A DNA stretch of 64,000 bases from Bacteroidota bacterium (GTDB taxonomy: Bacteria; Bacteroidota; Bacteroidia; Palsa-965). Position 1 is the first letter of the stretch, and each line of letters opens with the position of its first letter. The notes below the pieces were generated by a model. That model saw nothing but the letters and a program-made list of their open reading frames with translations, was not told the origin of the DNA and made no database searches. The stretch covers positions 1,114-65,113 of the forward strand of contig VBWE01000030.1 in the NCBI GenBank assembly GCA_006218065.1. Direction: 5' to 3'. Both the position numbers and the translations under genes were made by a program. Shown one piece after another: positions 37,021-58,939 of the stretch.

Positions 37021-39681
37021 CTAAAACTTCGCTATTAAACGTACACTAAGCTGCCGGTTGGTGAGATAATTCGGAATGCCGTACAAACGCCCGGTCACGT
37101 CTTTTACCCAGTAATACGAAACGGTATTGTTTACCTGCAGCAGGTTGTACACTTCGGCTCCGATCCAGAGCGATTTCATGAAACGGAACGGGTTGGATTC
37201 TTTCAGCGGCTTTTCTTCTTTGATCACCTGGTAGGAAAAACCGATATCCACGCGGCGGTAAGGAGGCATGCGCAGAACGGCCAGGTGCCGCTGGTGGTTG
37301 GGTGGTCCGAAAGGAAGACCCGTACCGACAACCAGCCCGAGGCTCATCTTGCAGTCGGGAAGCATAGGCAGGTAATCCTGGAAGTACATGGAAAAATTCA
37401 CGATCTGGTCCGTAGGACGCGGAATGAAACCGGGAGCATTGACGATACTGTCGACCGCGATATTATTCACCGTGTAGCCGGGATAAATCGTATCGCCGTC
37501 GCTGTTCAGGTAAATCACGAACCGGTCGTTATATAAATTTTCACGCGTGCGCAGGATGGAAAGATTTACCCACGAATCCGCTTTGCGCACAAACTGTCCG
37601 TTCAGTTTGAAGTCGATACCGTACGCGTAACCGTAAGCCTGGTTTTCGCCGAAATAGCGCAGGCGGACATCCGTTACTTCGTAAGGCACCAGGTTGTCGA
37701 GGTATTTGTAATACGCTTCGGTGATGAAACGGAAAGGCCGGTTCCAGAGTTTGAAATGAATATCGCCGCCGAGTACGGCGTGGACAGCGGTCTGCGCTTT
37801 TACATTCTTGTGCACGGTTCCGTTGAAATCGCGCAGTTCACGGTAAAACGGGGGCTGGCTGTAAAGTCCGCCCGCTACGCGGAAAGAAGCCTGGCGTTTC
37901 CAGTGCGGTTTCCAGGAAAGATTCACGCGCGGGCTCACGATCGTTTGCCCGTTCATGTTCCAGTAATGGCTGCGCACGCCGGCATTCAGTTCGAGCTGCG
38001 AAGTGTCGCGCAGTTTCCAGTTCCAGATATGCTGCACGAAAGCCATCGCCCGCGACGAAGCCAGTTCTGCTTTGCCTTTGATCAGGCCCTGCACTTCGAG
38101 CACTTCCAGCGGGTAGAACGGGATCGAATAACCTGCCGAATCCACCAGGCCCCATTCGCTCAGCTCGTCGGTAATCTGCTCGTGCTGGTAACGCAGTCCC
38201 CAGGAAAGAATGGAATTATTCGCGTTGTACGTGTAATCGCCTTTATGCTCACCGTTAATGACAAGTGCATCGAGAAAGTTCCGCGCATGATTAAGATATC
38301 CGCCCACGCCGCGGTTAAAAGCCACCTGCCCGAAAGTCGGTTTTCCGAAATCCGTTTCCAGCTGATCGATATAATATGCGCCTTCGATATCGAAGGTTTC
38401 ATTTTCGGAAGAGAAGAAAGAGGAACCGATAAATCTCAGCCGAAGCCGTTCGTTCGGGTGCATGTAATTCAACGCAAGCGCATTGAAATTCGTTTTGAAA
38501 CTGTTCACTTCCTGCCCCTCGAAAAACACCGTAAAGCGCAGCGCCTGGTTCAGCGTGCCGAATTCGGTTTCGCGCGTTTCGGGTCGCAGTTCGTATTTGT
38601 TCTGCGCGTAATTGCCGAGATAATCGAGCCGCCAGTGTTCGGTAAAATTATACGTCAGGAAAGCCTGCACATCGGTGAACGAAGTGGTGTAATCGCCGCG
38701 CGTATCGAGTTTGTTCAGCAGGTAACGGTTGCTTTTCTGCCGCGCGCCAAGCATCCAGGTAAACCGTTCGTCTTTCGAAATGCCTTCCACTTCAAAACTT
38801 CCACCGAGCAGTCCCGCGGAAAAAGTGCCTCCGAATTTTTTCGGCCGGCGGTAGGTGATATCGAGCACCGACGACATGGCATCGCCGTATTTCGCTTCAT
38901 AGCCGCCCGCGGAAAAAAATACGCGATCCACCATGTCGCCGTTCACGATGGTCAGTCCTTCCTGCTGCCCGGAGCGCGTGATCAATGGACGATACACTTC
39001 GATGCCGTTGATGTAAAGTTTGTTTTCGTCAAAACTTCCGCCGCGGATGGAGTATTGCGAACTCAGTTCGTTGTTTACCGAGCCGCCGATCACCAGGCGG
39101 AGCGCACCGATGAAATCGCCGCTGGGGCTGGGAATATTCTGGATCGGCCCGGGAGGAAAATAATCGCCGGTGCCGAGTACGCCATACACTTCGGTGGTAT
39201 CGCCGCCTTTGGGTTCGAGCTCAATCGCGAAATTTTTTATTTCCCCGGCCGTGAGCTTTACGGGAACATCATACCGTTTGAACCCGGTAAGCTGTACGGT
39301 GATCATCAGCGGCTGGCCTGCCGGGACGGTGAGTGTGAAATTTCCTTTAGCGTCGGTGAACGTTCCCTTGCTTTTTCCGCCGAGAATATACCCGACTGCG
39401 GCCGATTCCACAGGGCTGCCTTCCGGACCGGTGACGCGGCCGGTAATGGTTGCTTCCTGCGCGAGAGCCGGCAGGGTGAGTGCGAAAGCAAACAGGAGGA
39501 AAACGGAGCGTATCAGTTTACAGTTGGCAGTTGGCAGTTTCTGTTTTACAGGGATGTCGTCAAAAACCAGGAACTTCCGCTTATACAAGACAAAATTGCC
39601 AACTGTAAACTGCAAACGGCCAACTGCAAACCGGAATAACGACTTGATTGAAAAACGAATCTTTGAAATTTCCGCGGGCAT
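37021..39681 (-). CDS. TonB-dependent outer membrane receptor with an interrupted signal-peptide region
   Basis: The 886-residue protein has a signal sequence ending LTLPALAQ, an N-terminal carboxypeptidase-regulatory-like domain (ATITGRVTGPEGSPVESAAV), a plug domain (SSQYSIRGGSFDENKLYING, GYEAKYGDAMSSVLDITYR) and a beta-barrel ending VRLIAKF. It takes up an unknown substrate in an energised way. The start chosen is the ATG at 39679-39681 (MPAEISKIRFSIKSLFR), 17 nt after the preceding gene. Residues 18-56 are encoded by repeat copy N; without them the sequence joins to IRSVFLLFAFALTLPALAQ, a normal signal peptide. The longer open frame upstream (to 40407) is antisense-frame overlap with the 39699 gene. 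Alternative: a rare CTG or ATA start after the repeat. Confidence 0.9.
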   Translation of the reverse strand: MPAEISKIRFSIKSLFRFAVGRLQFTVGNFVLYKRKFLVFDDIPVKQKLPTANCKLIRSVFLLFAFALTLPALAQEATITGRVTGPEGSPVESAAVGYILGGKSKGTFTDAKGNFTLTVPAGQPLMITVQLTGFKRYDVPVKLTAGEIKNFAIELEPKGGDTTEVYGVLGTGDYFPPGPIQNIPSPSGDFIGALRLVIGGSVNNELSSQYSIRGGSFDENKLYINGIEVYRPLITRSGQQEGLTIVNGDMVDRVFFSAGGYEAKYGDAMSSVLDITYRRPKKFGGTFSAGLLGGSFEVEGISKDERFTWMLGARQKSNRYLLNKLDTRGDYTTSFTDVQAFLTYNFTEHWRLDYLGNYAQNKYELRPETRETEFGTLNQALRFTVFFEGQEVNSFKTNFNALALNYMHPNERLRLRFIGSSFFSSENETFDIEGAYYIDQLETDFGKPTFGQVAFNRGVGGYLNHARNFLDALVINGEHKGDYTYNANNSILSWGLRYQHEQITDELSEWGLVDSAGYSIPFYPLEVLEVQGLIKGKAELASSRAMAFVQHIWNWKLRDTSQLELNAGVRSHYWNMNGQTIVSPRVNLSWKPHWKRQASFRVAGGLYSQPPFYRELRDFNGTVHKNVKAQTAVHAVLGGDIHFKLWNRPFRFITEAYYKYLDNLVPYEVTDVRLRYFGENQAYGYAYGIDFKLNGQFVRKADSWVNLSILRTRENLYNDRFVIYLNSDGDTIYPGYTVNNIAVDSIVNAPGFIPRPTDQIVNFSMYFQDYLPMLPDCKMSLGLVVGTGLPFGPPNHQRHLAVLRMPPYRRVDIGFSYQVIKEEKPLKESNPFRFMKSLWIGAEVYNLLQVNNTVSYYWVKDVTGRLYGIPNYLTNRQLSVRLIAKF
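39514..39630. repeat. heptad-iterated inverted repeat, copy N, inside a coding region
   Basis: Left words CAGTTTA, CAGTTGG, CAGTTGG, CAGTTTC (39514-39541); right words GCCAACT, GTAAACT, GCAAACG, GCCAACT, GCAAACC (39598-39632). The 117-bp element has a length divisible by three and no stop in the receptor frame. Confidence 0.88.
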
Positions 39682-39698
39682 AATTTCAACGGCCTCCT

Positions 39699-40340
39699 TT
39701 ATTGTTTTTTGAGTGCGCCGCTTCGCCAGGCTTTTACAAATCGCGACCAGGCTACCGGGTTCAACAGGTTGTTGGGCGGGAGCTGCCCTGCGTAATACAT
39801 TTTGTTGCTTTGCTGCTGCATGCCTGAACGGAAGTTGGAGGAACCGTCGGCCCCGATGCTCGCCACGCCGATCAGCATAGCCTGCTGGTCGAGGTTCTTC
39901 TGCGCGCGCGCCAGGTCGTCGTCCGGGATATCCAGTTTCAGGAAAGCATCCTTGAATTGTTCTTTGGTGGGCCAGGGATAAATCACGGCTTCGCGCAGTT
40001 CGTAGGTATCGCGCTTCATCAGCTGGATAAGCGAGTAACGCGTTTGTTTGAGCGTATCGGGAATAACAAAACTGTTGTCCTTGTACCCGAGCGTGGTAAA
40101 CTGGATGGTATCGCCGGGCTGGGCTACAAACGAAAAGTATCCCGATACGTCGGCGAAAGTCCCGCGATGCGTATTTTGAATGATCACGGCTGTAAACGGA
40201 ACGGGTTGCAGGCTGTCGGCATCCACAACAACACCGGAAAACTGAACGACCGGTTTCCGGGGCGGTGCGGGAGGCGTTTTCGGCTGGGCAAAACCGGTAC
40301 CGGCTACGGCCAGGAAAAAAAGAAGAAAGAGTGCTCTCAT
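39699..40340 (-). CDS. exported carboxypeptidase-regulatory-like domain protein
   Basis: The 213-residue protein has a signal peptide (MRALFLLFFLAVAGTGFAQ), then a carboxypeptidase D regulatory-like domain: VQFSGVVVDADSLQPVPFTA, HRGTFADVSGYFSFVAQPGD, TLGYKDNSFVIPD. A C-terminal helical part (about residues 120-213) is specific. It lies 17 nt upstream of the receptor gene, so it probably works with it at the outer membrane. An in-frame start seven codons upstream is possible. Confidence 0.88.
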   Translation of the reverse strand: MRALFLLFFLAVAGTGFAQPKTPPAPPRKPVVQFSGVVVDADSLQPVPFTAVIIQNTHRGTFADVSGYFSFVAQPGDTIQFTTLGYKDNSFVIPDTLKQTRYSLIQLMKRDTYELREAVIYPWPTKEQFKDAFLKLDIPDDDLARAQKNLDQQAMLIGVASIGADGSSNFRSGMQQQSNKMYYAGQLPPNNLLNPVAWSRFVKAWRSGALKKQ

Positions 40341-40517
40341 TATAGATAACAGATGTCTCAAAGTTACAAAGAAAAGCCGCCCGATTATTCATAAGCATGT
40401 TATTCACTGGCTTACAAACAAAAACGGTTCTGGATTATTGTTTAAGACGCAAAAAAAAGAAAAAAGAATAGGGCAGGGGTTTAAAATTGGCTACTTTTAA
40501 CAGCCCAAACACACCTT

Positions 40518-47114: not shown

Positions 47115-47174
47115 GCAATACTCCTCAAAGTACGATTGCTGAAAACGGATAATTTATTTCGGAAGACTTTAGAT

Positions 47175-47360
47175 CAAAAAACAAAAAGCAAAATGCAAAC
47201 GGCAAAAAGCAAACAAATCGGTTTATGGAAAAAGGAATTGCCATTTGCCATTTGCTTTTTGCTTTTTATTAAGTACAAAATGCAAACAGCAACACGTGAT
47301 AAAATGAATACAGGAAAAAGGAAATTGCTTTTTGCATTTTGCTTTTTGCCTTTTCATTTG
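47175..47360. repeat. heptad-iterated inverted repeat, copy O (two modules)
   Basis: Module 1: six perfect units CAAAAAA, CAAAAAG, CAAAATG, CAAACGG, CAAAAAG, CAAACAA (47175-47216) against CCATTTG, CCATTTG, CTTTTTG, CTTTTTA (47241-47268). Module 2: CAAAATG, CAAACAG, CAACACG against CTTTTTG, CATTTTG, CTTTTTG near 47330-47355. Module 2 contains the chosen start codon of the next gene. Confidence 0.88.
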
Positions 47361-49328
47361 AATATACGCCATTTCGCACTCTTACTTTTGCTCGTTGTAC
47401 CGGATGCCGTTTCCGCAGCGCCCGTTTCAGAAGCGGACCTGCAGAAGAAAGCGGATATTCTCTACAACCGCCGCGAATACGAGCTTGCCTATGATTACTA
47501 CCTGCGGCTGAAATCCATACAGCCAGCCAAACTGCTGTACGAATTCCGTGCAGGAGTTTGCGCCATTTATTCGGGCGACGCGGTTACCGCGCTCGGTTTC
47601 CTGAAAGGATGCATTGAAAAAGACACCGCGCTCACCGATATTCATTTCTTCCTCGGCCGGGCCTATCTTTTAAACAACAAGCCCGACGAAGCCCGTACCT
47701 ATTTCATGAAGCAGGCTTCAAAAGAAACGGATGAAGCCCAGCGGAAAAAACTGCAGTACTGGGTGTATTACTGCAACAACGCTATCGAACAAATGGCGAA
47801 ACCGGTAAATGCCAACGTGCAGAATGCCGGCCGCCCTGTAAATACACCCGGAGATGAATTTGCACCCGTGCTTATGCCGGATAATATGGGCATGTGGTTC
47901 ACGTACAAAGGCACGCAAAGCACCGGCGGAAAAATGCGCGTATTCGGCCGCAACGATTCGGCGGGGTATTACCTCGAAGACGTACTCGATTGCCGGATGA
48001 CCAACAACGGCTGGTCGATCCCGCTCCCGCTGAGCGACAGTGTAAACACCGCGAAGCACGACGCCTGCACGGCCGTTTCTCCCGACGGGCTGCACCTGTA
48101 TATTTACCGGAGCTCACCGAAAGACGGCGGCGATATTTACGTTTGCCACAAACGCGGACTGGACTGGAGCCGCCCGGAAAAAATCCTAGGCGAAATTAAT
48201 ACGCCGGCGTGGGAGGGCAGCATCAGTTTTGCAGCGGACGGAAAAACGGCCTATTTCGCCAGCGAGCGTGAAGGCGGTTATGGCGGAAAAGATATTTACC
48301 GGAGCACATTGAAAGACGACGGTACCTGGGGAAATATCGAAAACCTCGGGCCTAATATCAATACGGAGATGGACGACGATGCGCCGTTTCTTTTCGAAGA
48401 AGGCAAACGCATGTCGTACGCATCGAAAGGACAAAACAGCATCGGCGGTTATGATATTTTTATTTCGGAGCTGCTGCCCGACGGAAAAACATGGAAAGAA
48501 GGCGTAACGATCGGCTACCCGGTAAACAGTACCATGGACGATATTTATTACGCACCGAACCCGGATGGATTTTCCGCTTATCTCTGCTCCAACCGCGCGG
48601 GCGGAAACGGCGGGATGGATATTTACATCAGTGAACCCGGCATGCCCGCGAAAGCCGGCGACCTGGTACTCATCAAAGGCATTGTAACGCTCGACGATCT
48701 TCCTGCCGCCGCCGCCGTTTCGGTTACTGCCGGCGGAAAAGATTCGCTGGTGGGCGATTACCGCAGCAACGGGGCTTCCGGCCGCTATGCCGTTTCGCTT
48801 CCGCCTGGAAACGATTATAAAGTAACCTTCATCATGAGCGGCTGCATCGATTCGGTAAAATCATTCAATGCTTCCGATGTAAGCAGCTTTGTAGCCAAAT
48901 CGTTTGATGTTGCGTTTTACTCCGCGGAATATAAACGCGTGCACTACGAACGTTTCGGCGTGAAGGACACCAGTACGTTTACCAAAAAACTGCTTTTCCT
49001 TTCCGGCGACGAGATTACGCTTCCGAACGGGGAAAAAACGGTTGTCCGCCGCGACTCCAGCAAAACGTACCAGGACGAAAAAGGACAAACGATGGGGCAG
49101 GGTATGTTTATCGTGATCGGTTCGTTTAAAAATGCGCCGTATGCCAAACGCCTGCAGGCCAAAATCAAAAATGATAAGGTATATCCAGCGCACGACCTGG
49201 TGTATAACCGCGAAAACGGATTTACTTACGTGGTTGTTGCACGCCCGAAATCAACGGAAGAAGCCGCCGACTGGGTAACACGCGCAAGAAAAGAATATCG
49301 CGATGCCTGGATTCAGCAACTCGAATAA
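47304..49328 (+). CDS. PorE-like protein: TPR, beta-propeller, regulatory-like domain and C-terminal SPOR-like domain
   Basis: The 674-residue protein begins in a repeat (ATG 47304-47306), with a signal peptide near RHFALLLLLVVPDAVSA. Domains: TPR-like helices (about 40-140, REYELAYDYYLRLKSIQPAK); a PD40-type beta-propeller (about 187-455) with blades such as WEGSISFAADGKTAYFASER and DIYYAPNPDGFSAYLCSNRA; a carboxypeptidase-regulatory-like domain (about 457-515, DYRSNGASGRYAVSLPPGND); and a C-terminal SPOR-like domain (about 600-674, GMFIVIGSFKNAPYAKRL). This is the PorE layout, except that PorE ends in an OmpA-C peptidoglycan-binding domain. It probably ties the secretion/adhesin complex to peptidoglycan. 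The longer frame upstream starts in a TTG at 47136. Confidence 0.85.
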   Translation: MNTGKRKLLFAFCFLPFHLNIRHFALLLLLVVPDAVSAAPVSEADLQKKADILYNRREYELAYDYYLRLKSIQPAKLLYEFRAGVCAIYSGDAVTALGFLKGCIEKDTALTDIHFFLGRAYLLNNKPDEARTYFMKQASKETDEAQRKKLQYWVYYCNNAIEQMAKPVNANVQNAGRPVNTPGDEFAPVLMPDNMGMWFTYKGTQSTGGKMRVFGRNDSAGYYLEDVLDCRMTNNGWSIPLPLSDSVNTAKHDACTAVSPDGLHLYIYRSSPKDGGDIYVCHKRGLDWSRPEKILGEINTPAWEGSISFAADGKTAYFASEREGGYGGKDIYRSTLKDDGTWGNIENLGPNINTEMDDDAPFLFEEGKRMSYASKGQNSIGGYDIFISELLPDGKTWKEGVTIGYPVNSTMDDIYYAPNPDGFSAYLCSNRAGGNGGMDIYISEPGMPAKAGDLVLIKGIVTLDDLPAAAAVSVTAGGKDSLVGDYRSNGASGRYAVSLPPGNDYKVTFIMSGCIDSVKSFNASDVSSFVAKSFDVAFYSAEYKRVHYERFGVKDTSTFTKKLLFLSGDEITLPNGEKTVVRRDSSKTYQDEKGQTMGQGMFIVIGSFKNAPYAKRLQAKIKNDKVYPAHDLVYNRENGFTYVVVARPKSTEEAADWVTRARKEYRDAWIQQLE

Positions 49329-51047
49329 TCAGCGCGTAAATTTCTTTTTGTATTCCGTCGCATTTCCTTTTTTATCCGAAACGAGCAGCCGCAGCTCATG
49401 ATCGCCTTTTCCCACGCGCGAATCGAAAGAGTAATAGAGTAATTTTTTCTTCGGCTCGTATTCCAGCAGCACCCATTTTCCGTCGATATACAATTTATAG
49501 CTGCCGATCCCGGAAAGATTATCACTCACGGTAAAGCCGATGTATTTCAGCGCTGCGAAGCCGGACTGGATACCTTTCTGGTCGAAATTGGCGGGCTTTA
49601 CGGAAGGAGCCGTAGTATCGGGCGCGACGGAGTAATTTCCGAATTCCTTGATCATTGTCGTAATCTGCCCGTTTTCATAAACGCCGCCCACGCTGCTGCG
49701 CCCTCCTTTCGGGGAAATTTCAACGACCAGTAATTTTGAAGCAAGCGAGTCCGGGATTCTTCCTGCGGGTTTGATGGTCAGCGAGCAGGGCAGTTGCAGC
49801 GGCGTTTTGTCGTTGTGCAAACTCACGACCGGCCAGGTGGCCCCTGCCGCGCGGCTTGAACCGGATTTGAGGTACTCATCTTCATATAAAGCGCCTGCCG
49901 GGATGACAAAACGGAAATGCTCGGATTGCAGTACGTTTTCCTGGTCCCATTTTTTCGGTGCGAGCGACTGGCCCATGATGTTTTTTCCTGATCCTTTGAT
50001 TTTGAATTCCGCCGCAGCCGTATTTCCGTTCACATCGATGAGTACGTATTTTATACGGTACACGCTGTCACCGGAGATCAGTAACTGTCCTTTGGAAACA
50101 ACCGAATCGTAAATCGGCAGTTTGTTGTTCGGCGCGAGAAAACTTTTCTGGTAATACTTTTTGCCGGTCTGCAGTTCCGGGTAGTCGATATAACAATTGA
50201 TGTAACGCGACTCGTCAAACCCCATTTTGCGGAAGCCGTGACTGTAAATCAGCTTGTCGTTTTTCCAGACCTGCATGCCGTACACGCCGTTTTTCCCGTG
50301 GCGCGTATCTTCCTGGTCGAAACCTTCCATCGCGAAACCGATCCTTCCGCAGGCCACGATACTGTCGGCCGGGTTGGCGAAAACATATTTCTGCCCGGAT
50401 TTTTTCAGCGTGATTTTTTTGCGTCCCGATTTCGCTCCTTTGACTTCCGCAGCGCCATCCAGTTCGTACACTACCAGCGTTTGCGGCGTGGGCGGGATGG
50501 AATCGGAAATGGGCAAACCGAAAAGCTGCGGGTTCAATGCTTCTTCCGTATTCGCATCGCGTATCTCGAAATGCAGGTGCGGTCCTCCCGAACTGCCGGT
50601 ATTGCCCGAGTATCCCATGATCTGTCCCTGCTTCACCGGCAGTTCGCCCGGGCGCGGAAAAAGTTCCACTTCAAATGATTCGCGCGAGTATTGTTCGTGC
50701 TCTACGTATTTCCCGATCCCGGGATTGAATTTCGAGAGGTGCGCATAAACCGTCACGTAACCGTTGGCATGCATCACGTAAAGCACCCGCCCGTACCCGT
50801 AAGGACCCACTTTGATGCGCGTAACAAAACCTTCGGCGGAAGCCATTACCGGGATGCCTTCTTTGTTGCTGGTCGAAAAATCGAGCCCGGCGTGAAAATG
50901 GTTCGGCCGCAGTTCCCCGAAATTCCCGGAAATGCGCGGCGGAATGTTCATCGGCATCCGGAAATAATTCTTCGGGAAATTATCCTGGGCAGTGGAAACC
51001 AATACCGGTAAAAAGAGCAGGAGGTTTATGGAAATCAGTCGGCGCAT
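49329..51047 (-). CDS. exported M23 family metallopeptidase
   Basis: The 572-residue protein has a signal peptide (MRRLISINLLLFLPVLVSTAQ) and an N-terminal LytM/M23 domain: NHFHAGLDFST (first zinc ligands His and Asp), VYAHLS and GPHLHFEIRD (HxH). It cleaves peptidoglycan cross-bridges or other peptides. Two or more C-terminal beta domains follow (TTAPSVKPANFD, FTVSDNLSGIGSYKLYIDGK), as in Bacteroidota DipM/NlpD-like long peptidases. The ATG at 51045-51047 was chosen; MAKLLLQY ten codons upstream also keeps the frame. Its stop is adjacent to the PorE-like stop, with no gap. Confidence 0.92.
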   Translation of the reverse strand: MRRLISINLLLFLPVLVSTAQDNFPKNYFRMPMNIPPRISGNFGELRPNHFHAGLDFSTSNKEGIPVMASAEGFVTRIKVGPYGYGRVLYVMHANGYVTVYAHLSKFNPGIGKYVEHEQYSRESFEVELFPRPGELPVKQGQIMGYSGNTGSSGGPHLHFEIRDANTEEALNPQLFGLPISDSIPPTPQTLVVYELDGAAEVKGAKSGRKKITLKKSGQKYVFANPADSIVACGRIGFAMEGFDQEDTRHGKNGVYGMQVWKNDKLIYSHGFRKMGFDESRYINCYIDYPELQTGKKYYQKSFLAPNNKLPIYDSVVSKGQLLISGDSVYRIKYVLIDVNGNTAAAEFKIKGSGKNIMGQSLAPKKWDQENVLQSEHFRFVIPAGALYEDEYLKSGSSRAAGATWPVVSLHNDKTPLQLPCSLTIKPAGRIPDSLASKLLVVEISPKGGRSSVGGVYENGQITTMIKEFGNYSVAPDTTAPSVKPANFDQKGIQSGFAALKYIGFTVSDNLSGIGSYKLYIDGKWVLLEYEPKKKLLYYSFDSRVGKGDHELRLLVSDKKGNATEYKKKFTR

Positions 51048-51126
51048 GAGTCTATACTGCAAAAGTAGTTTCGCCATCCATGCACATTGCCTATTTTTGA
51101 TAAACAATCCCCAATACTTTTCAACT

Positions 51127-52908
51127 GTGCTGAATAGACTCATTTCTGTTTTCCTGTTTCTCGCAATTGCCGTGCCTCTTTCGGCGCAGCCGCGAAACGG
51201 GCGGCACAAAGAGCAGCATCCTAACGGGAAAACGTCGGTGAGCGGGCATTTCAGGAAAGGACTGCGGAGCGGTAAATGGGAATATTACGCCGAAAACGGG
51301 TTACTGCTTCGCCGCGAATATTATAAGCAGGGGAAAGCGCAGGGCTGGTCGCGGGCTTTTGAAGACGGGAAGTATCTCCGCACGGAGACACATTATACGG
51401 ACGGAAAACGTGACAGTATTTACCGCGAATTCGACCGGCAGGGAAACGTTATGCTGGCCGGCCGTTATGCCGGTGATATGAAACAGGGAACCTGGACAAC
51501 ATACAGCAGTCCTTCGCCGGATATGATCAGCAGGAAGAGTTTTTACATTCCATACGTCCGTTTCCGCTTCGTATATGCGCACAAACTGGTCAAAGGCCGC
51601 CAGCTAACGCTGAAAACGGAAAACTACCTCGACGGTCTGCTGCACGGGGAATACAAACAATTCAACGAAACATTCAACCTGGTCGTTTCAGGTCAGTACG
51701 AAAACGGGAAACGATCGGGACTTTTCACCGAATTCAGTAAAGATTTCACTACGCGTTATGAACGTACGTACCGGAACGACAGCCTGGTGAAAGAAGCGGA
51801 GTTCGGCCGGAAACATATAGAGTATGAACTGCGGGACGGCGTAAAGCATGGTGTTTATAAAGAATGGTCCACATACTCGGGCGGACATCTGAAACTGCAG
51901 GGACAATATGTAAACGGTGAACGTCACGGAACTTTCCAGGAATGGAACCGCACGGGAAAAAAATGGCTGGAGTATAATTATGTAAACGGGGAACTGACGG
52001 GCGAACGAAAAGAGTTTGACGAGAACGGGTGGGTTACCATACACGCGTTTTTCAAAAACGGTGATTACGACAGTACATACACAACATACTACGATAAGTC
52101 TTTAAAGCATGAAGAACAGTGGTTTTGCCGGGATGGGAAATTCGAAGGTACTTACTTCCGCTGGCATGAACATGTCTGTATTGACAAACAGGCGTATCAG
52201 CCGGAACTCTACCCGGGAGCGCTCATGGGCATACCTTCGCTTGCGGAAGAAGGACAATATGTGAATGACAAACGCGAAGGCAAATTCACCGGTTACGCCT
52301 GCGACGGTAAACTGCTTTATACAGCGCATTATAGAAGCGGGACGCTGGACGGACTTTATGAAGAGTATCATGCTAATGGGAAAATATTTATCCGGCAGGA
52401 ATTTAAAACCGGTCAGCTTGCCGGAACGCTGAAAGTATGGGAGCCCAATGGGAAACTGCAGAAAGAATACTCCATCGCTGAGATAAAAAGCAACATGGTA
52501 GATCAAGATCCGGTCGCGGGCATCAGGCGATTCGCAGCGCGGGCCAGCAGAAGACCGGATGAGGTGACCGATCCTGGAGATGAGATTGGCTTGATGGAAT
52601 TCCCGGAAGAACAACCTTCCTTTCCCGGCGGTGAGAGTGAAATGTACAAGTACCTGTCTCAAAATATCCGCTATCCGGCCATGGAGAAGGAAATGGGCAT
52701 CCAGGGAACGGTGTATATCAAGTTCATTATCGGAAAAGACGGCTCGGTTTCGGAAGTGGAAGTTGCAAGATCCGTTCCCGGCGGCACTGGCCTGGAAAAG
52801 GAAGCTGTACGCGTGATCAGAAGCATGCCCCGCTGGAGCCCTGGTAAAACAAACGGAAGACCTGTTCGCACAAAATACACGCTTCCTATCCGTTTTATCC
52901 TGCACTGA
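51127..52908 (+). CDS. YwqK/MORN_2-repeat protein 1 with TonB C-terminal domain
   Basis: The 593-residue protein starts at a GTG (51127-51129) and has a signal peptide (LISVFLFLAIAVPLSAQ). Residues about 22-450 are YwqK-type MORN_2 repeats of about 23 residues: GHFRKGLRSGKWEYYAENG, GQYVNGERHGTFQEWNRTGK, HYRSGTLDGLYEEYHANGKI. The last 100 residues are a TonB C-terminal domain: QPSFPGGESEMYKYLSQNIRYP, GTVYIKFIIGKDGSVSEVEV, MPRWSPGKTNGRPVRTKYTL. There is no cytoplasmic TonB anchor, only a cleavable signal peptide, so the domain should be free in the periplasm or outside. It is first of five tandem paralogues and divergent from the M23 peptidase. Confidence 0.85.
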   Translation: MLNRLISVFLFLAIAVPLSAQPRNGRHKEQHPNGKTSVSGHFRKGLRSGKWEYYAENGLLLRREYYKQGKAQGWSRAFEDGKYLRTETHYTDGKRDSIYREFDRQGNVMLAGRYAGDMKQGTWTTYSSPSPDMISRKSFYIPYVRFRFVYAHKLVKGRQLTLKTENYLDGLLHGEYKQFNETFNLVVSGQYENGKRSGLFTEFSKDFTTRYERTYRNDSLVKEAEFGRKHIEYELRDGVKHGVYKEWSTYSGGHLKLQGQYVNGERHGTFQEWNRTGKKWLEYNYVNGELTGERKEFDENGWVTIHAFFKNGDYDSTYTTYYDKSLKHEEQWFCRDGKFEGTYFRWHEHVCIDKQAYQPELYPGALMGIPSLAEEGQYVNDKREGKFTGYACDGKLLYTAHYRSGTLDGLYEEYHANGKIFIRQEFKTGQLAGTLKVWEPNGKLQKEYSIAEIKSNMVDQDPVAGIRRFAARASRRPDEVTDPGDEIGLMEFPEEQPSFPGGESEMYKYLSQNIRYPAMEKEMGIQGTVYIKFIIGKDGSVSEVEVARSVPGGTGLEKEAVRVIRSMPRWSPGKTNGRPVRTKYTLPIRFILH

Positions 52909-52949
52909 TTGTCCCTGCATTATCTTAAATTTGATCAAAACCGTGCCGG

Positions 52950-54167
52950 ATGAGATTCGTTTCTCTTTTTTCCTTTTTCCTGTTTTTCTCTGTCATCCTC
53001 CGGGCTCAGCCGGAGAACGGGTATTATGCGGAAAAACATCCCGGCGGGGAAAAATCCTGTGAAGGCAATTACAAAAAAGGGAAAAAAGAAGGCACCTGGA
53101 ATTGCTGGTCGGCCAACGGCGTACTGATCCGCAAAGAAAATTACCGCCAGGGAGAACTGCATGGCAGGCAGATCGAATGTTACGGCGAAAAATTCATTAC
53201 CAGCAGCAGTTATTATACAATGGGCCTGCGCGACAGCGTATGGAAACGTTTCGATGAAAAAGGCCGCGTAATCTCGGAAAGGACATACCGCAACGATCTG
53301 CCCGGCGGAGGCTGGGATTATTATGACTGGACCAGTGGGCAGCAGATCCGGGTGAAAAGAGAATTTTACCGCGACGGCCTGCGCGACGGCCAGTTTATTG
53401 AATGGACCAATACCGGCGTGAGAAAATCGGAATCGTGGTACAAAAAAGATCTGCGCGACAGTCTCTGGCTGACTTTCGATAATTCAGGACGTGTGCTTAC
53501 CGAATCACGTTACCGGGATGATTTGCCAAACGGAGTATGGCGCACCTGGCAATGGTCGGGGCAAAAAAAAATACTTGTGCAAAGCGAAAATTACGTGGAC
53601 GGAAAAAGAGACGGGCTTTTCGAAGCCTGGAACCCCGACAGCACAAAGAAAGTCAGCGCTAAGTTTAAAGCCGGTAAAATACAGGCTGCGCCCGAAGCCT
53701 GGGATTACACCGGTGCGCCTGTCGCTCCGGATCAGTTCGAATATTGTGCTATCGTTTACAGTACCGACCTGAGATCGTATTACATGAATGATACTGTACT
53801 CGCGCGCAAACACATGCCCGGTTGCTATGGTTACGATCCTACCGAACAGGTATTTGATTATACCGATACCCGCGCTGAATTTCCCGGCGGAATTGATTCG
53901 ATGAATGCGTATATCCGCAGGAACCTGCGTTATCCCGACCTCTGCAAAGAACAGGCGATCCAGGGAACCGTGTACATTAAGTTCATCGTGGAGAAAAACG
54001 GCATGATTACCGATGCGAAGATCGTGCGGGGCATACGAGGTTGTCCGCAGATGGAAAAAGAATCGTTGCGGGTGGTGAAAGGAATGCCCCGGTTTAAACC
54101 GGCCCGGCAAGGCGGCAGGATTGTTCGTTCCTATTCTACAATCCCGTTCCGCTTTAAGCTGAGCTGA
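52950..54167 (+). CDS. YwqK/MORN_2-repeat protein 2 with TonB C-terminal domain
   Basis: The 405-residue protein has a signal peptide (SLFSFFLFFSVILRAQ), a shorter set of MORN_2 repeats (about 20-270, for example GNYKKGKKEGTWNCWSANG and ENYVDGKRDGLFEAWNPD), and a TonB C-terminal domain (about 312-405: RAEFPGGIDSMNAYIRRNLRYP, GTVYIKFIVEKNGMITDAKI, MPRFKPARQGGRIVRSY). It lies 41 nt after protein 1. The repeats are less regular than in proteins 1 and 4. Role as for protein 1. Confidence 0.87.
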   Translation: MRFVSLFSFFLFFSVILRAQPENGYYAEKHPGGEKSCEGNYKKGKKEGTWNCWSANGVLIRKENYRQGELHGRQIECYGEKFITSSSYYTMGLRDSVWKRFDEKGRVISERTYRNDLPGGGWDYYDWTSGQQIRVKREFYRDGLRDGQFIEWTNTGVRKSESWYKKDLRDSLWLTFDNSGRVLTESRYRDDLPNGVWRTWQWSGQKKILVQSENYVDGKRDGLFEAWNPDSTKKVSAKFKAGKIQAAPEAWDYTGAPVAPDQFEYCAIVYSTDLRSYYMNDTVLARKHMPGCYGYDPTEQVFDYTDTRAEFPGGIDSMNAYIRRNLRYPDLCKEQAIQGTVYIKFIVEKNGMITDAKIVRGIRGCPQMEKESLRVVKGMPRFKPARQGGRIVRSYSTIPFRFKLS

Positions 54168-54224
54168 AGCGGTATGGAAAATGCCGGTTCGATGCATCCA
54201 GTAAGAAACCAAAATGGAATTTCT

Positions 54225-55940
54225 ATGCGTTTCTTTACCCAAACCATCCTGATTGCAAGCCTGTTCAGTTCATCCCTTTTGGCCCAGCCCGGAGATACAG
54301 ACGGATTTAAAACCGAAAAACATCCCAACGGGCAAAAAGCCGCAGCCGGTTATTACGTAAAAGGCAAAAAAGACGGTTTCTGGAAATACTGGTCCGAAGA
54401 CGGCAAACTCCGCAAAACGGAAATGTACCGGAAAGGCCTGTTGAACGGTTGGTACAGGCTGTATTTCGCCAACGATTCCACAGCCGAAGAAATGTTTTAT
54501 GCAAACGGCGAGCTGGACAGTTCATACAAAGAGTTTAACGATGCCGGCAGTTTGCTGGTCAGCGGACATTATAAGAGCGGGAAAAAAACGGGCGAGTGGA
54601 ATCATTACCTGCGCAACACAACAATTAACGGCGTTAACATGAACTGGGGCGGACAGAACGGCAGCCAGGCGAGGCCCGCACCTCCGAAACTTCCGCTGGT
54701 AAAAACGGAAAACTACCGCGAAGGATTATTGCATGGAACGTATATCGAAAATGACGCCTGGGGAAGAGTGACCTTGCGGGGCCAGTATACGAATGGCAAG
54801 AAAGACGGCAAATTCGAAAAGATTTATGAAAGCCTCGTGCAATGGTTCAGCCGTGATTCGCTGGTGCGGGAGAAGAAAGCGAAAGACGGCGGCATGGAAG
54901 AATCAGAATTGAAAAACGGGCAGAAGCACGGCGAGTACAAATATTACAAACCGGCGAATGTCCTGCGGATCGAAGGACGTTACAGGAATAATATCCGCCA
55001 CGGAAAATTTACCGAATACCGCGCCGACGGAAGCAAATGGCTCGAATACACATACGTTGACGGCACCCTGCATGGTGAAAAAAGAGAATTCGACGCAGCC
55101 GGGAAACTCAGCCTGGTATGCCGCCTGAACAACGGAATTTTCGACAGCCTGTATACTACGTTTTACCCGAAAGGAACGGTGAAAGAACAATGGAGATGCG
55201 TGAAAGGAGATTTTGAAGGCGCTTTTACGGCGCATCATCCAAACGGCAGGCTCGCGGAAACGGGCATGTACCGGAACGATATGCGCGAAGGTATTTTTAC
55301 TTCGTACGATACGCTGGGAAATAAAATGGGTGTGGTGCAGTACCACGAAGGTATGAAAAACGGTACTTATACCGAATGGTATTCGTCGGGCAGCGCGAAG
55401 AAAATGGAACTGAAATTTGTGGACGACAGCCTGGCCGGTGCACCGAAATTCTGGTCGAAGGAAGGCCGGATGCTCCGCGGCCCGCAGCTCGGAGGGATTT
55501 ACGAACTCAACGGGAGTTACGCGAATTATTACGGGTACGCGATGCCGGATACGCTTACGGAAATTTTTGACCAGATGCGTTTTATTTTCAGCCTGCCGCT
55601 CGAAAACCGGAACGAAAATGTAAAACCTGCGCGTTATGCCAAAGGCGACAAGGGCCTGGTGAGCGATCTCGCGCGTGTGCTGCTTCCGTATGCCAATAAT
55701 TATTATTATGGATCGGGAATCGTGGTGCTTACTTTTGATGTGACGGAAAAAGGCGTGATGGAAAACCTGAAAGTGTATAAAGCATACGACCGGAAAAGTA
55801 TTTACAACTACAATGCGCAGTCTTTCAGCCAGAATATACTGGCCGCAATGAACACCTTGCTTAATGAAAAATGGATCCCTGCGGAAGAGAACGGTCAGAA
55901 AAGAAAGAGCCGGGAAATCCTGGTCATAAAATCCAAATAG
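54225..55940 (+). CDS. YwqK/MORN_2-repeat protein 3 with divergent TonB_C-like end
   Basis: The 571-residue protein has a signal peptide (TILIASLFSSSLLAQ) and MORN_2 repeats to about residue 430 (GYYVKGKKDGFWKYWSEDGK, GRYRNNIRHGKFTEYRADGS, YHEGMKNGTYTEWYSSG). No FPGG motif follows. The last 85 residues, GIVVLTFDVTEKGVMENLKV...NEKWIPAEENGQKRKSREIL, still follow the strand order of a TonB C-terminal domain, so it seems to be a degenerate version. The ATG at 54225-54227 was chosen as it gives a direct signal peptide; an upstream in-frame start at 54174 adds 17 residues. Confidence 0.82.
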   Translation: MRFFTQTILIASLFSSSLLAQPGDTDGFKTEKHPNGQKAAAGYYVKGKKDGFWKYWSEDGKLRKTEMYRKGLLNGWYRLYFANDSTAEEMFYANGELDSSYKEFNDAGSLLVSGHYKSGKKTGEWNHYLRNTTINGVNMNWGGQNGSQARPAPPKLPLVKTENYREGLLHGTYIENDAWGRVTLRGQYTNGKKDGKFEKIYESLVQWFSRDSLVREKKAKDGGMEESELKNGQKHGEYKYYKPANVLRIEGRYRNNIRHGKFTEYRADGSKWLEYTYVDGTLHGEKREFDAAGKLSLVCRLNNGIFDSLYTTFYPKGTVKEQWRCVKGDFEGAFTAHHPNGRLAETGMYRNDMREGIFTSYDTLGNKMGVVQYHEGMKNGTYTEWYSSGSAKKMELKFVDDSLAGAPKFWSKEGRMLRGPQLGGIYELNGSYANYYGYAMPDTLTEIFDQMRFIFSLPLENRNENVKPARYAKGDKGLVSDLARVLLPYANNYYYGSGIVVLTFDVTEKGVMENLKVYKAYDRKSIYNYNAQSFSQNILAAMNTLLNEKWIPAEENGQKRKSREILVIKSK

Positions 55941-55948
55941 AGCGAATT

Positions 55949-57652
55949 GTGAAGAAGTGTCTTTTTCTTGTCTTCCTGTTTTTTGCAGGCATAACCGTTG
56001 CAGATGCGCAAACCATTCCTCCGCACCGCGGCAGGCATATTGAAAAGTATCCGAACGGAGAAAAGAAACTCGTCGGGCGTTGCAAAAAAAGCGGGGCCAC
56101 AGGCAAATGGAAATCATACTATGAAAACGGGAATCTCCGCGAATTAAGCCATTATCATAAAGGCGAACGCACAGGTTCATTTACATCCTGGTATGAATCC
56201 GGTAAAGTAAAAGAGACCGGAACGTATATGCAGGACAAAAAAAACGGGGAATGGATTGTCCTATATGAAAGCGGGAAACGGAAAAACGTGCGTTATTATG
56301 ACCAGGGCCAGGCCGTGGGCGAGTGGATGCATTGGTACGAAAACGGCAGGGTGGAAAAAACGGAATCGTTTGCCGATGGTTTGCTGTACGGCCCTTCGGA
56401 ATATTTTTATAGTAATGGACAAGTCATGCGCCTGGTTTCATACGATGCCGGCCGGAAAAACGGTTATTGGAACGAATATGATTCAACAGGCGCAGTTACG
56501 CTGATGATCGAATACCGGCTGGATGTGCTCGATGGAAATTACCGGCAGTGGGAAAATGGTAAACAAATTAAGGATTACTGGTACGCCAACGGTTTGCTCC
56601 ACGGTTCGCAGCTCGATATGAATGTAAAAGGCGATACGGTGCTTTATGAAAACTACAGCGCCGGTAAATTTCACGGCATACAGAAACGATATGAAAACGG
56701 GAAATGCGTGTATGCCGCCATGTATTCCGACGGCTCCCGGAACGGCGAAGTAAATTCCTATGCCGTAACATCCGGTGTGCTGCTGCTGCGCGAATGGTTT
56801 ACGATGGATCACGTGGACAGTACGCTGGCGCGGTATGTAAACGGGTACGATAAATATTTCCGCCGCTACGACCGGAACGGAAAACTGCACGGCATTTACG
56901 AGGAATGGAATGACAACGGGAAATTGCTGGTGCGCGGAACATATGTACATGGATTAAAGAGCGGGGAGTGGACAGTATATTATCCCGAAGGGCAGAAAAA
57001 GTCGACGGTAACTTTTGTGGACGGGAAAGCGCACGGACTTTTCCAGCGTACCTATCCGAACGGTAAAAAAATACTGGTGCAGCGTTTTGAAAACGGCGAA
57101 GCGAAAGGATACGCCGAAATATGGGACGATAAAGGCCGACTGTTCCGCCGCGGAAGCCTGATGTATGAAGCGATACTCGCCAGCAGCCTGATCGATGAAA
57201 CCTTTGTGGGCGCAAACGACGAACCGGATATGCCCGAACCGCCGAGAAGAACAAAGCAGCACGATGCAAGGAATGAAATACCTGTATATGATTATGTTAT
57301 TGAGCCGCCCGTACCTGAACTGCCCGAACCTGAAATATTCCAGGTTGCAGAAGAAATGCCGGTTTTTCCCGGTGGCGAAGCGGGGATGATGGAATTTATA
57401 AAGAGAAATATGGTTTATCCGCGGGAAGAACTGGAAGCCGATAAAAAGGGTACTGTTTACCTCAGCTTTGTTGTTGAAAAAGACGGAAGCATATCGGATG
57501 TGAAACCGCTTAAAGAAGTCCGCGACGCCCCCGGCCTCAGCAAAGAAGCTATCCGCCTGGTCAAGACGATGCCCCGGTTTACGCCGGCTAAAATGAACGG
57601 AAGAACCGTGCGCGCACGCATGACCATCCCGATCCGGTTTGTATTGCGTTGA
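55949..57652 (+). CDS. YwqK/MORN_2-repeat protein 4 with TonB C-terminal domain
   Basis: The 567-residue protein starts at a GTG (55949-55951) 8 nt after protein 3, with a signal peptide (CLFLVFLFFAGITVADAQ). MORN_2 repeats run to about 405 (GTYMQDKKNGEWIVLYESGK, GTYVHGLKSGEWTVYYPEG). A Pro/Glu-rich linker of about 65 residues (PVPELPEPEIF) then leads to the TonB domain (about 471-567: MPVFPGGEAGMMEFIKRNMV, GTVYLSFVVEKDGSISDVKP, MPRFTPAKMNGRTVRARMTI). The linker resembles the Pro-rich spacer of true TonB, but no membrane anchor precedes it. Confidence 0.87.
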   Translation: MKKCLFLVFLFFAGITVADAQTIPPHRGRHIEKYPNGEKKLVGRCKKSGATGKWKSYYENGNLRELSHYHKGERTGSFTSWYESGKVKETGTYMQDKKNGEWIVLYESGKRKNVRYYDQGQAVGEWMHWYENGRVEKTESFADGLLYGPSEYFYSNGQVMRLVSYDAGRKNGYWNEYDSTGAVTLMIEYRLDVLDGNYRQWENGKQIKDYWYANGLLHGSQLDMNVKGDTVLYENYSAGKFHGIQKRYENGKCVYAAMYSDGSRNGEVNSYAVTSGVLLLREWFTMDHVDSTLARYVNGYDKYFRRYDRNGKLHGIYEEWNDNGKLLVRGTYVHGLKSGEWTVYYPEGQKKSTVTFVDGKAHGLFQRTYPNGKKILVQRFENGEAKGYAEIWDDKGRLFRRGSLMYEAILASSLIDETFVGANDEPDMPEPPRRTKQHDARNEIPVYDYVIEPPVPELPEPEIFQVAEEMPVFPGGEAGMMEFIKRNMVYPREELEADKKGTVYLSFVVEKDGSISDVKPLKEVRDAPGLSKEAIRLVKTMPRFTPAKMNGRTVRARMTIPIRFVLR

Positions 57653-57691
57653 AAATCGCAATAGCTTTGCAGCGGCAAATACATTCCACCC

Positions 57692-58939
57692 GTGAACAAA
57701 ATTCCGCTTTACATCCTCGGTATTCTTTTTACTTTTTCCTGTATCCATGCTTCGGCTCAGCCTGAAAACGGCCTGTTCAAAGCGAAGCACGCCAACGGGG
57801 AAACCGCGTCGCGCGGACATTACAAGGACGGGCTTAAAACCGGCAAGTGGGAATACTGGACGGAAACCGGCAGCCTGGTGAAAGTGGAAACCTTCGAGAA
57901 AGGCAAAAGGAACGGACGCTACGAAACCTATATCTATTCGAACAAACCTGCTGTTACCGGTTCATTCCTCGATGATAAGGAAGATGGCGAATGGCGCGGC
58001 TATTACGAAAACGGTTTGCCGCATTATATAAAATATTACAAAGCCGGTTTGCCGGATAAAACCTGGATTTATTTTCACCTGAACGGGCAGAAAGCATCCG
58101 AGGAGAAATATGTTGACGGCCTGAAGGAAGGACTTGCCACGACCTGGTCGGTGAATGGAGAAGTATCAACGGAAATTATGCACAGCAAGGGAAAATGGAA
58201 CGGCACCGCGAAAACCTACGAGGAATCGGGCAAGCTGAGTATCGTTTCCGAATACCGCGACCAGTTGCGGCACGGGGAATACAAAGAATGGAAAAAAGGC
58301 GTGCTCGTGGAAGCTTCCGCGTACAGTGAAGGTAAGCTGCACGGCCGCAGAACAACCTGGTCTGCCGCAGGCGATACGCTTTTACAGGAGCATTATAAGA
58401 ACGGTATCCGCGAGGGCCATGCGATCGTATGGAGCAACAAGCGCCGCGTAAGTGAAACGAATTACATGAACGGAAAGCTCGAAGGCGTTTCCAGATTTTA
58501 CGATTCGGAAAAAGGCAATTTGCTGTACGTCATGTGGCTCCACGAGGGCCGTCCCGACAGCGCGATGAATTTTTATCCCGATGGAAAACGGCAGAACCTG
58601 ATCATCTACGGAAAAGACGGCCTGCGCACCGGCAATTTCACGGATTGGTATGAAGACGGTAAAATAAAAACCACCGGCTATTATATGAATGGCGAACGCC
58701 AGTTTATCTGGAAAACGTTTTTTCCCGACGGTTCGATCGCATCCATCGCCGCCTACCAGTTCGGCGACCTGGTGGAAACGTATACGGCCAAATATCCCAA
58801 CGGGAAAAAGAAAATCGAGCAGAATTATAAAGAAGGCAAACCTGTCGGCCCGGCAAGAATATGGGACGACAAAGGGAAATTACTGCCCGCATCATCCGAA
58901 CAGTATAAGGAAATTCTGAAAACCGGTTTGCCGGATTAA
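57692..58939 (+). CDS. YwqK/MORN_2-repeat protein 5, repeats only
   Basis: The 415-residue protein starts at a GTG (57692-57694) and has a signal peptide (ILGILFTFSCIHASAQ). MORN_2 repeats fill nearly all of it (GHYKDGLKTGKWEYWTETGS, YYMNGERQFIWKTFFPDGS). The last 30 residues (GPARIWDDKGKLLPASSEQY) correspond to the end of the repeat part of protein 4 (GYAEIWDDKGRLFRRGSLMY), so this paralogue stops exactly where protein 4's linker begins. It is the last gene of the run, convergent with the next gene. Confidence 0.87.
   Translation: MNKIPLYILGILFTFSCIHASAQPENGLFKAKHANGETASRGHYKDGLKTGKWEYWTETGSLVKVETFEKGKRNGRYETYIYSNKPAVTGSFLDDKEDGEWRGYYENGLPHYIKYYKAGLPDKTWIYFHLNGQKASEEKYVDGLKEGLATTWSVNGEVSTEIMHSKGKWNGTAKTYEESGKLSIVSEYRDQLRHGEYKEWKKGVLVEASAYSEGKLHGRRTTWSAAGDTLLQEHYKNGIREGHAIVWSNKRRVSETNYMNGKLEGVSRFYDSEKGNLLYVMWLHEGRPDSAMNFYPDGKRQNLIIYGKDGLRTGNFTDWYEDGKIKTTGYYMNGERQFIWKTFFPDGSIASIAAYQFGDLVETYTAKYPNGKKKIEQNYKEGKPVGPARIWDDKGKLLPASSEQYKEILKTGLPD

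What the first reader, a model, noticed from the sequence alone, without database searches (positions are those of the whole stretch)
51127..58939. Five tandem secreted YwqK/MORN_2-repeat paralogues, with TonB C-terminal domains on three
The five genes share a signal peptide cut near A-Q, an opening such as KHPNGEK---G-Y-KGKK-G-W, and many 23-residue repeats. Proteins 1, 2 and 4 end in a complete TonB C-terminal domain with FPGG, G-VY--F-V---G and MPR(F/W)-P. They lack the inner-membrane anchor of a true TonB. A TonB box-binding domain that is free in the periplasm, or attached to the outer membrane, could hold or block TonB-dependent receptors, or the repeats could bind peptidoglycan or glycans. 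YwqK of Bacillus is an antitoxin to YwqJ, so an immunity role is another idea. No toxin gene is seen.
Basis: partly seen in the sequence, partly recalled or inferred. Interest (0 to 1): 0.75.

Follow-up and report, generated by a model that had tools for sequence, protein, structure and literature searches.

The report
Anchorless TonB-tipped periplasmic MORN-repeat proteins
Five neighbouring genes in a Bacteroidota bacterium make secreted, rod-like repeat proteins, three of which end in a seemingly intact copy of the receptor-gripping tip of TonB but lack the membrane anchor and motor link that make TonB work, so they may hold or brake nutrient receptors rather than drive them; this is untested.

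Summary
Genes at 51127-52908, 52950-54167, 54225-55940, 55949-57652 and 57692-58939 encode secreted MORN_2-repeat proteins. The repeat period is 24 residues, not 23. All five keep the signal-peptidase site A/Q expected of soluble Bacteroidota exports. Proteins 1, 2 and 4 end in canonical TonB_C domains (54-72 bits). Protein 3 ends in a degenerate one, visible only in the predicted fold; protein 5 has none. The architecture is in 7 of 7 near-complete genomes of the same family (12 species) and only sporadic elsewhere. Lone secreted TonB_C proteins often lie beside these genes. The domains keep TonB's conserved positions as well as a second, truly anchored TonB does (73% against 71%). Across the family they resemble the housekeeping TonB of their own genome more than chance allows (p about 0.001, absent in two controls), though not in this genome. 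My preferred reading is a motorless TonB-tip mimic: a periplasmic solenoid that binds TonB's partners without energy, as a clamp or brake. The main rival is an envelope scaffold tied to the adjacent M23 peptidase and PorE-like SPOR protein. Immunity (YwqK) is unsupported. No partner was tested. New variant of a known kind.

The parts
51127..52908 (+). Gene 1 (P0001, 593 aa, GTG start): signal peptide, MORN_2 solenoid, short linker, canonical TonB_C
52606..52905 (+). TonB_C domain of protein 1 (residues 494-593): FPGG, YP, GTVY, MPRWSPG, LPIRF
52950..54167 (+). Gene 2 (P0002, 405 aa): signal peptide, MORN_2 repeats (sub-threshold in Pfam), TonB_C
53865..54164 (+). TonB_C domain of protein 2
54225..55940 (+). 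Gene 3 (P0003, 571 aa): signal peptide, MORN_2 solenoid, degenerate TonB_C
55635..55937 (+). Degenerate TonB_C of protein 3: predicted topology kept, 31% of conserved TonB positions, altered last strand
55949..57652 (+). Gene 4 (P0004 plus start; GTG, 567 aa): signal peptide, MORN_2 solenoid, acidic/proline-rich linker, canonical TonB_C
57350..57649 (+). TonB_C domain of protein 4
57692..58939 (+). Gene 5 (P0005, 415 aa, GTG start): signal peptide and MORN_2 repeats only, no TonB_C
51092..51099 (+). TAnnTTTG, Bacteroidota -7-type promoter motif upstream of gene 1 (the motif consensus is from general knowledge)
51060..51067 (-). Divergent TAnnTTTG motif upstream of the M23 gene
52926..52933 (+). 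TAnnTTTG motif upstream of gene 2
57662..57669 (+). TAnnTTTG motif upstream of gene 5
49329..51047 (-). Divergent neighbour: secreted M23 peptidase, a core gene of the class; adjacent or near-adjacent to MORN genes in 6 family genomes
47136..49328 (+). Context: PorE-like protein with TPR, PD40 propeller and SPOR domain

Best explanation
[quoted passage not shown] The MORN solenoid holds the protein to itself or to another envelope component. The TonB_C tip binds by strand addition to partners that the anchored TonB also binds, probably TonB boxes of outer-membrane receptors. With no motor attached they cannot pull plugs open, so they would hold, mask or compete for receptors: a brake, clamp or tether. 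Protein 3 (degenerate tip) and protein 5 (no tip) would be accessory solenoids or diverging copies. Shown: domain content, predicted fold, signal sequences, absence of an anchor, conserved positions, family conservation, and the same-genome resemblance in relatives. Inferred: what the tip binds, what the MORN part binds, and the effect on transport.
For: Canonical TonB_C in three proteins; a profile of these plus anchored TonBs finds solved TonB structures (E 8e-8). Predicted structure has the TonB fold after a short linker. Export without anchor: A/Q sites, the site favoured by Bacteroidetes signal peptidase I substrates (PMC5837995). TonB-A conserved positions are kept at 73% on average in MORN-TonB_C, 86% in protein 1, against 71% in anchored TonB-B. 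Synonymous change is near or at saturation (dS about 1.5) while dN is 0.41-0.49 between protein 1 or 4 and the genome's TonB, so the domain looks to be under purifying selection. Across the family, MORN-type and array-type tips resemble the same genome's TonB-A beyond chance (+2.6 points, p=0.0018, and +5.4, p=0.0012); TonB-B (p=0.22) and lipoprotein-type TonB_C (p=0.71) do not. The genome has 22 plug matches and anchored TonBs. Precedent by title: periplasmic TonB domain inhibits FecA and FhuA.
Against: No partner binding was modelled or measured. In this genome the tips are not specially close to its own TonB (ranks 5, 3 and 5 of 7). The same-genome effect is small, rests on one approximate permutation scheme, and one of its groups was split after seeing the data. 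TonB_C is also fused to a protein kinase, a zinc-finger membrane protein, an M56 peptidase and TPRs, so it may be a general periplasmic binding module. Proteins 3 and 5 show that the tip is dispensable.
Confidence: 0.4

Rival explanations
1. Peptidoglycan or outer-membrane scaffold: the MORN rods and TonB_C tips organise cell-wall remodelling or outer-membrane tethering with the adjacent M23 peptidase and PorE-like SPOR protein, and the tip's partner is not a transport receptor.
For: M23 gene is divergent, 80 bp from gene 1, with motifs on both strands. MORN(-TonB_C) genes lie next to or one gene from M23 in G000, G002, G004, G006, G008 and G009. PorE-like SPOR and PorP are on the other side in G000, G004 and G008. 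In Fusobacterium nucleatum, FtsX and EnvC pulldowns contain M23 NlpD and two MORN proteins, one named YwqK (PMC5915739).
Against: M23 keeps its usual neighbours (a ~513 aa RNase Y-like gene and ZapA-like genes) without MORN in G001, G003, G005 and G010, and in sampled genomes of other families no TonB_C gene adjoins it. Several MORN-TonB_C genes lie elsewhere (L049, L053, L056). Shared position can be inherited rather than functional.
Confidence: 0.27
2. Ordinary lineage-expanded MORN surface or periplasmic proteins in which TonB_C is a general protein-binding or sensing domain with diverse, non-TonB-box ligands.
For: TonB_C occurs in many unrelated architectures; MORN-TonB_C rows do not form one clade; the tip is lost or degenerate in some copies.
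Against: Conserved TonB positions are retained as well as in anchored TonB-B, and the same-genome resemblance to TonB-A is unexpected under this reading.
Confidence: 0.22
3. Immunity or antitoxin proteins of the YwqK kind against periplasm-acting toxins.
For: Same MORN_2 repeats as in proteins named YwqK; tandem divergent paralogues resemble immunity arrays in outline.
Against: No toxin gene among scanned neighbours, no PADLOC match, all exported, TonB_C unexplained.
Confidence: 0.04
4. True energy-transducing TonBs in which an uncleaved signal peptide serves as anchor.
For: N-terminal hydrophobic segment precedes a periplasmic body and a TonB_C tip.
Against: A/Q cleavage sites in all five; no cytoplasmic motif as in the genome's anchored TonBs; no ExbB/ExbD nearby; some relatives have lipoboxes.
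Confidence: 0.05

Closest known systems
TonB energy transducer, C-terminal domain (PF03544 / TIGR01352)
   Same: Same C-terminal domain, conserved positions and predicted fold
   Different: No inner-membrane anchor, no motor-binding segment, MORN solenoid in place of the usual spacer, no ExbBD nearby
MORN_2 / YwqK-type repeat proteins (PF07661)
   Same: Same repeat family and beta-meander; best sensible fold matches are MORN1 of Trypanosoma and Toxoplasma, junctophilins, SET7/9
   Different: Exported; three carry TonB_C; no YwqJ-like toxin linked
LIC20035 family adhesin (NF033566)
   Same: Weak similarity through MORN repeats, 50-70 bits
   Different: Far below that model's cut-off of 250 bits
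Lone secreted TonB_C proteins of Bacteroidota (about 130-200 aa)
   Same: Exported TonB_C without anchor; interleaved with MORN-TonB_C genes in L047
   Different: No repeats; some are lipoproteins

Membership tests
TonB energy transducer | C-terminal TonB_C domain | tested here: met
   72.0, 54.2, 54.6 bits in proteins 1, 2, 4; degenerate in 3; absent in 5
TonB energy transducer | N-terminal inner-membrane anchor that contacts the motor | tested here: not met
   Cleavable A/Q signal peptides; no cytoplasmic extension as in the genome's anchored TonBs
TonB energy transducer | Genetic link to ExbB/ExbD | tested here: not met
   None among neighbours; ExbB/D-like genes sit by the anchored TonB in L065 (identified by reading the sequences)
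TonB energy transducer | Binds TonB boxes | not testable with these tools
   No complex prediction or assay available
MORN_2 repeat family | MORN_2 repeats above Pfam cut-off | tested here: met
   Proteins 1, 3, 4, 5 over 29.6 bits; protein 2 at 25.0 is below
YwqK antitoxin | Cytoplasmic partner of a linked YwqJ-type toxin | tested here: not met
   Exported proteins, no linked toxin, no PADLOC hit
LIC20035 adhesin | NF033566 score of at least 250 | tested here: not met
   50.4-70.2 bits

The most novel reading that the evidence does not exclude
Bacteroidota evolved families of motorless TonB mimics, secreted rods or small domains that present the same tip as the cell's own TonB and track it in evolution, and use them to regulate, park or tether TonB-dependent receptors or PorE-like proteins without energy.
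Probability: 0.33. Interest if true: 0.78.

Novelty: new variant of a known kind. Interest (0 to 1): 0.5.

Why it matters
TonB is understood as an anchored, energised puller. Many Bacteroidota proteins annotated by this domain have no anchor. If the anchorless tips bind the same receptors, they are a built-in control on nutrient import, and counts of TonB genes per genome are inflated. The question is directly testable with peptide-binding and uptake assays.

Tried and rejected
The profile A1 was too diverse for a genome-contig scan. A scan with P0001 alone found nothing. A scan with A2 returned almost only anchored TonBs: by my classifier 79 anchored, 9 short, 1 MORN, and several of the 'short' are truncated or anchored on inspection. 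The M23 link was at first thought general to the class; 40 neighbourhoods showed it is not, and four family genomes lack it. Recent gene conversion as the cause of the same-genome resemblance was rejected because synonymous sites are at or near saturation. Rhs and teneurin fold matches were discarded (rmsd over 30 A). Literature search for MORN with TonB C-terminal in Bacteroidetes gave no paper in the held library. A first periodicity run used gapped rows by mistake and was replaced.

Full report
Observation. Five same-strand genes lie at 51127-52908, 52950-54167, 54225-55940, 55949-57652 and 57692-58939 (gene 4 start read). Four exceed the MORN_2 cut-off; protein 2 scores 25.0 against 29.6. 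A loose repeat pattern is found 4-12 times per protein against about one in shuffled copies. The repeat period is 24 residues with 48 and 72 harmonics, not 23. TonB_C is present in proteins 1, 2 and 4 with 72.0, 54.2 and 54.6 bits (cut-off 24.6) and a profile of such domains finds solved TonB structures.

Protein 3. Pfam gives only 12.7 bits, but the sequence aligns along the whole domain, profile comparison gives E 9e-4 with a low probability of 23%, and the predicted structure has the same order of helices and strands at moderate confidence. It keeps 31% of the positions conserved in the anchored TonB-A group, against 67-86% for proteins 1, 2 and 4. I call it a degenerate TonB_C.

Location. 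All five have an invariant A/Q signal-peptidase site. In Bacteroidetes most signal peptidase I substrates expose an N-terminal glutamine (PMC5837995). No other hydrophobic segment is found in them. The genome's main anchored TonBs instead have a cytoplasmic segment with YGA before a membrane helix. No type IX sorting domain is matched at their C-terminus. So they are predicted soluble and periplasmic. Relatives L049 and L052 have lipoboxes instead.

Structure. Protein 1 is predicted as a MORN beta-meander from residue 25 to 448, a short helical segment, a disordered linker at 476-491 and a TonB-type domain. Foldseek finds MORN1 of Trypanosoma and Toxoplasma, junctophilin and SET7/9. An individual MORN1 subunit of 9 repeats is about 80 A long, and MORN repeats are protein-interaction modules (PMC7725318). 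About 17 hairpins here would give a rod near 15 nm if straight; this is my extrapolation and two or three loops are disordered.

TonB_C in this genome. Eight matches: three here, three anchored-type TonBs (C78; two on C64), one M56 peptidase fusion and one lipoprotein. Plug-domain matches number 22.

Distribution. Long MORN-TonB_C matches are in 7 of 7 near-complete genomes of the family of 12 sampled species. At E 1e-60 they occur in no other of 296 genomes across the phylum, although that search scored few candidates per genome and would miss diverged forms. Shorter or diverged cases are in G018, G083 and a named Bacteroidetes MAG (L193). Tandem groups recur: L047 has three MORN-TonB_C and four lone TonB_C genes in a row, and L048, L138, L172 and L193 have pairs.

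Is the tip functional? Averaged over 20 MORN-TonB_C domains, 73% of TonB-A conserved positions are kept, against 71% for anchored TonB-B and 61% for lone TonB_C. Synonymous sites are at or near saturation while non-synonymous change is limited. On the domain tree MORN rows do not form one group; starred branches force at least three changes, but 95 columns leave most forks unresolved.

Same-genome resemblance. For each anchorless domain I compared identity to TonB-A of its own genome with TonB-A of six other genomes, with exhaustive permutation of genome labels. MORN-TonB_C: +2.6 points, p=0.0018 (n=17). Array-type lone TonB_C: +5.4 points, p=0.0012 (n=11). Controls: TonB-B +0.9, p=0.22 (n=6), and lipoprotein-type TonB_C -0.6, p=0.71 (n=8). 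The split of the lone class was made after seeing the rows, n is small, and proteins 1, 2 and 4 here show no such closeness (ranks 5, 3, 5 of 7). It suggests that such tips have been recopied from, or co-evolve with, the housekeeping TonB in relatives, which fits shared partners. It does not prove it.

Neighbourhood. An M23 peptidase is divergent from gene 1 with TAnnTTTG motifs on both strands in the gap. M23 is a core gene of the class, nearly always single-copy (178 of 196 good genomes). A MORN(-TonB_C) gene lies beside it, or one gene away, in six family genomes, including a contig-end fragment in G002. G001, G003, G005 and G010 keep M23 next to zapA/RNase Y-like genes without it, as do many other families. 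PorE-like SPOR and PorP genes lie on the other side in G000, G004 and G008. MORN proteins copurify with FtsX/EnvC and an M23 protein in Fusobacterium nucleatum (PMC5915739). This supports the wall-scaffold rival, at moderate strength.

Mechanism. The preferred model is a motorless TonB-tip mimic. In FhuA the TonB box pairs with the TonB C-terminal domain by strand addition (PMC11658791). A periplasmic TonB domain made in E. coli inhibits uptake through FecA and FhuA (Howard et al. 2001, title seen in two reference lists; paper not read). A natural protein of that make would compete with, hold or mask receptors. Steps from domain identity to ligand and effect are inference.

Other readings. Immunity is unsupported. 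Energised TonB through an uncleaved signal peptide is unlikely. A general binding or sensing use of TonB_C is plausible, since it also occurs with kinase, zinc-finger, M56 and TPR parts.

Verdict. The receptor interpretation is reasonable but untested. It is a new variant of known parts, conserved in one family.

Noticed in passing
L047:6610-13845 (G009): Array of seven exported TonB_C genes: three MORN-TonB_C interleaved with four lone TonB_C proteins, one a likely lipoprotein.
   Followed up: partly
L055:8763-10556: Ser/Thr protein kinase with a membrane segment and a C-terminal TonB_C domain, in a cluster of similar kinase and FHA-like genes (the FHA part by eye).
   Followed up: partly
L063:8536-10125 and L181:5930-7258: Membrane proteins with an N-terminal zinc-finger-like stretch (weak zf-HC2 match in L063) and a C-terminal TonB_C, looking like anti-sigma-type sensors.
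   Followed up: partly
L232:9896-11830: Exported protein with TonB_C near the N-terminus followed by many TPR repeats.
   Followed up: partly
window 47136-49328: PorE-like TPR-PD40 protein that ends in a SPOR domain; a carboxypeptidase-like stretch between them is by eye only.
   Followed up: partly
window 37021-40407: 1128-aa receptor-like protein with CarboxypepD_reg and only a weak Plug match after a long N-terminal extension; its relation to the cluster was not tested.
   Followed up: no
L051:4437-6679 and L267:6697-8592: In two genomes a MORN gene, with TonB_C in G003 and without it in G001, is followed by a related 192-aa lipoprotein gene.
   Followed up: no
window 52926 and 57662: TAnnTTTG motifs shortly upstream of genes 2 and 5 suggest separate promoters inside the cluster.
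   Followed up: no
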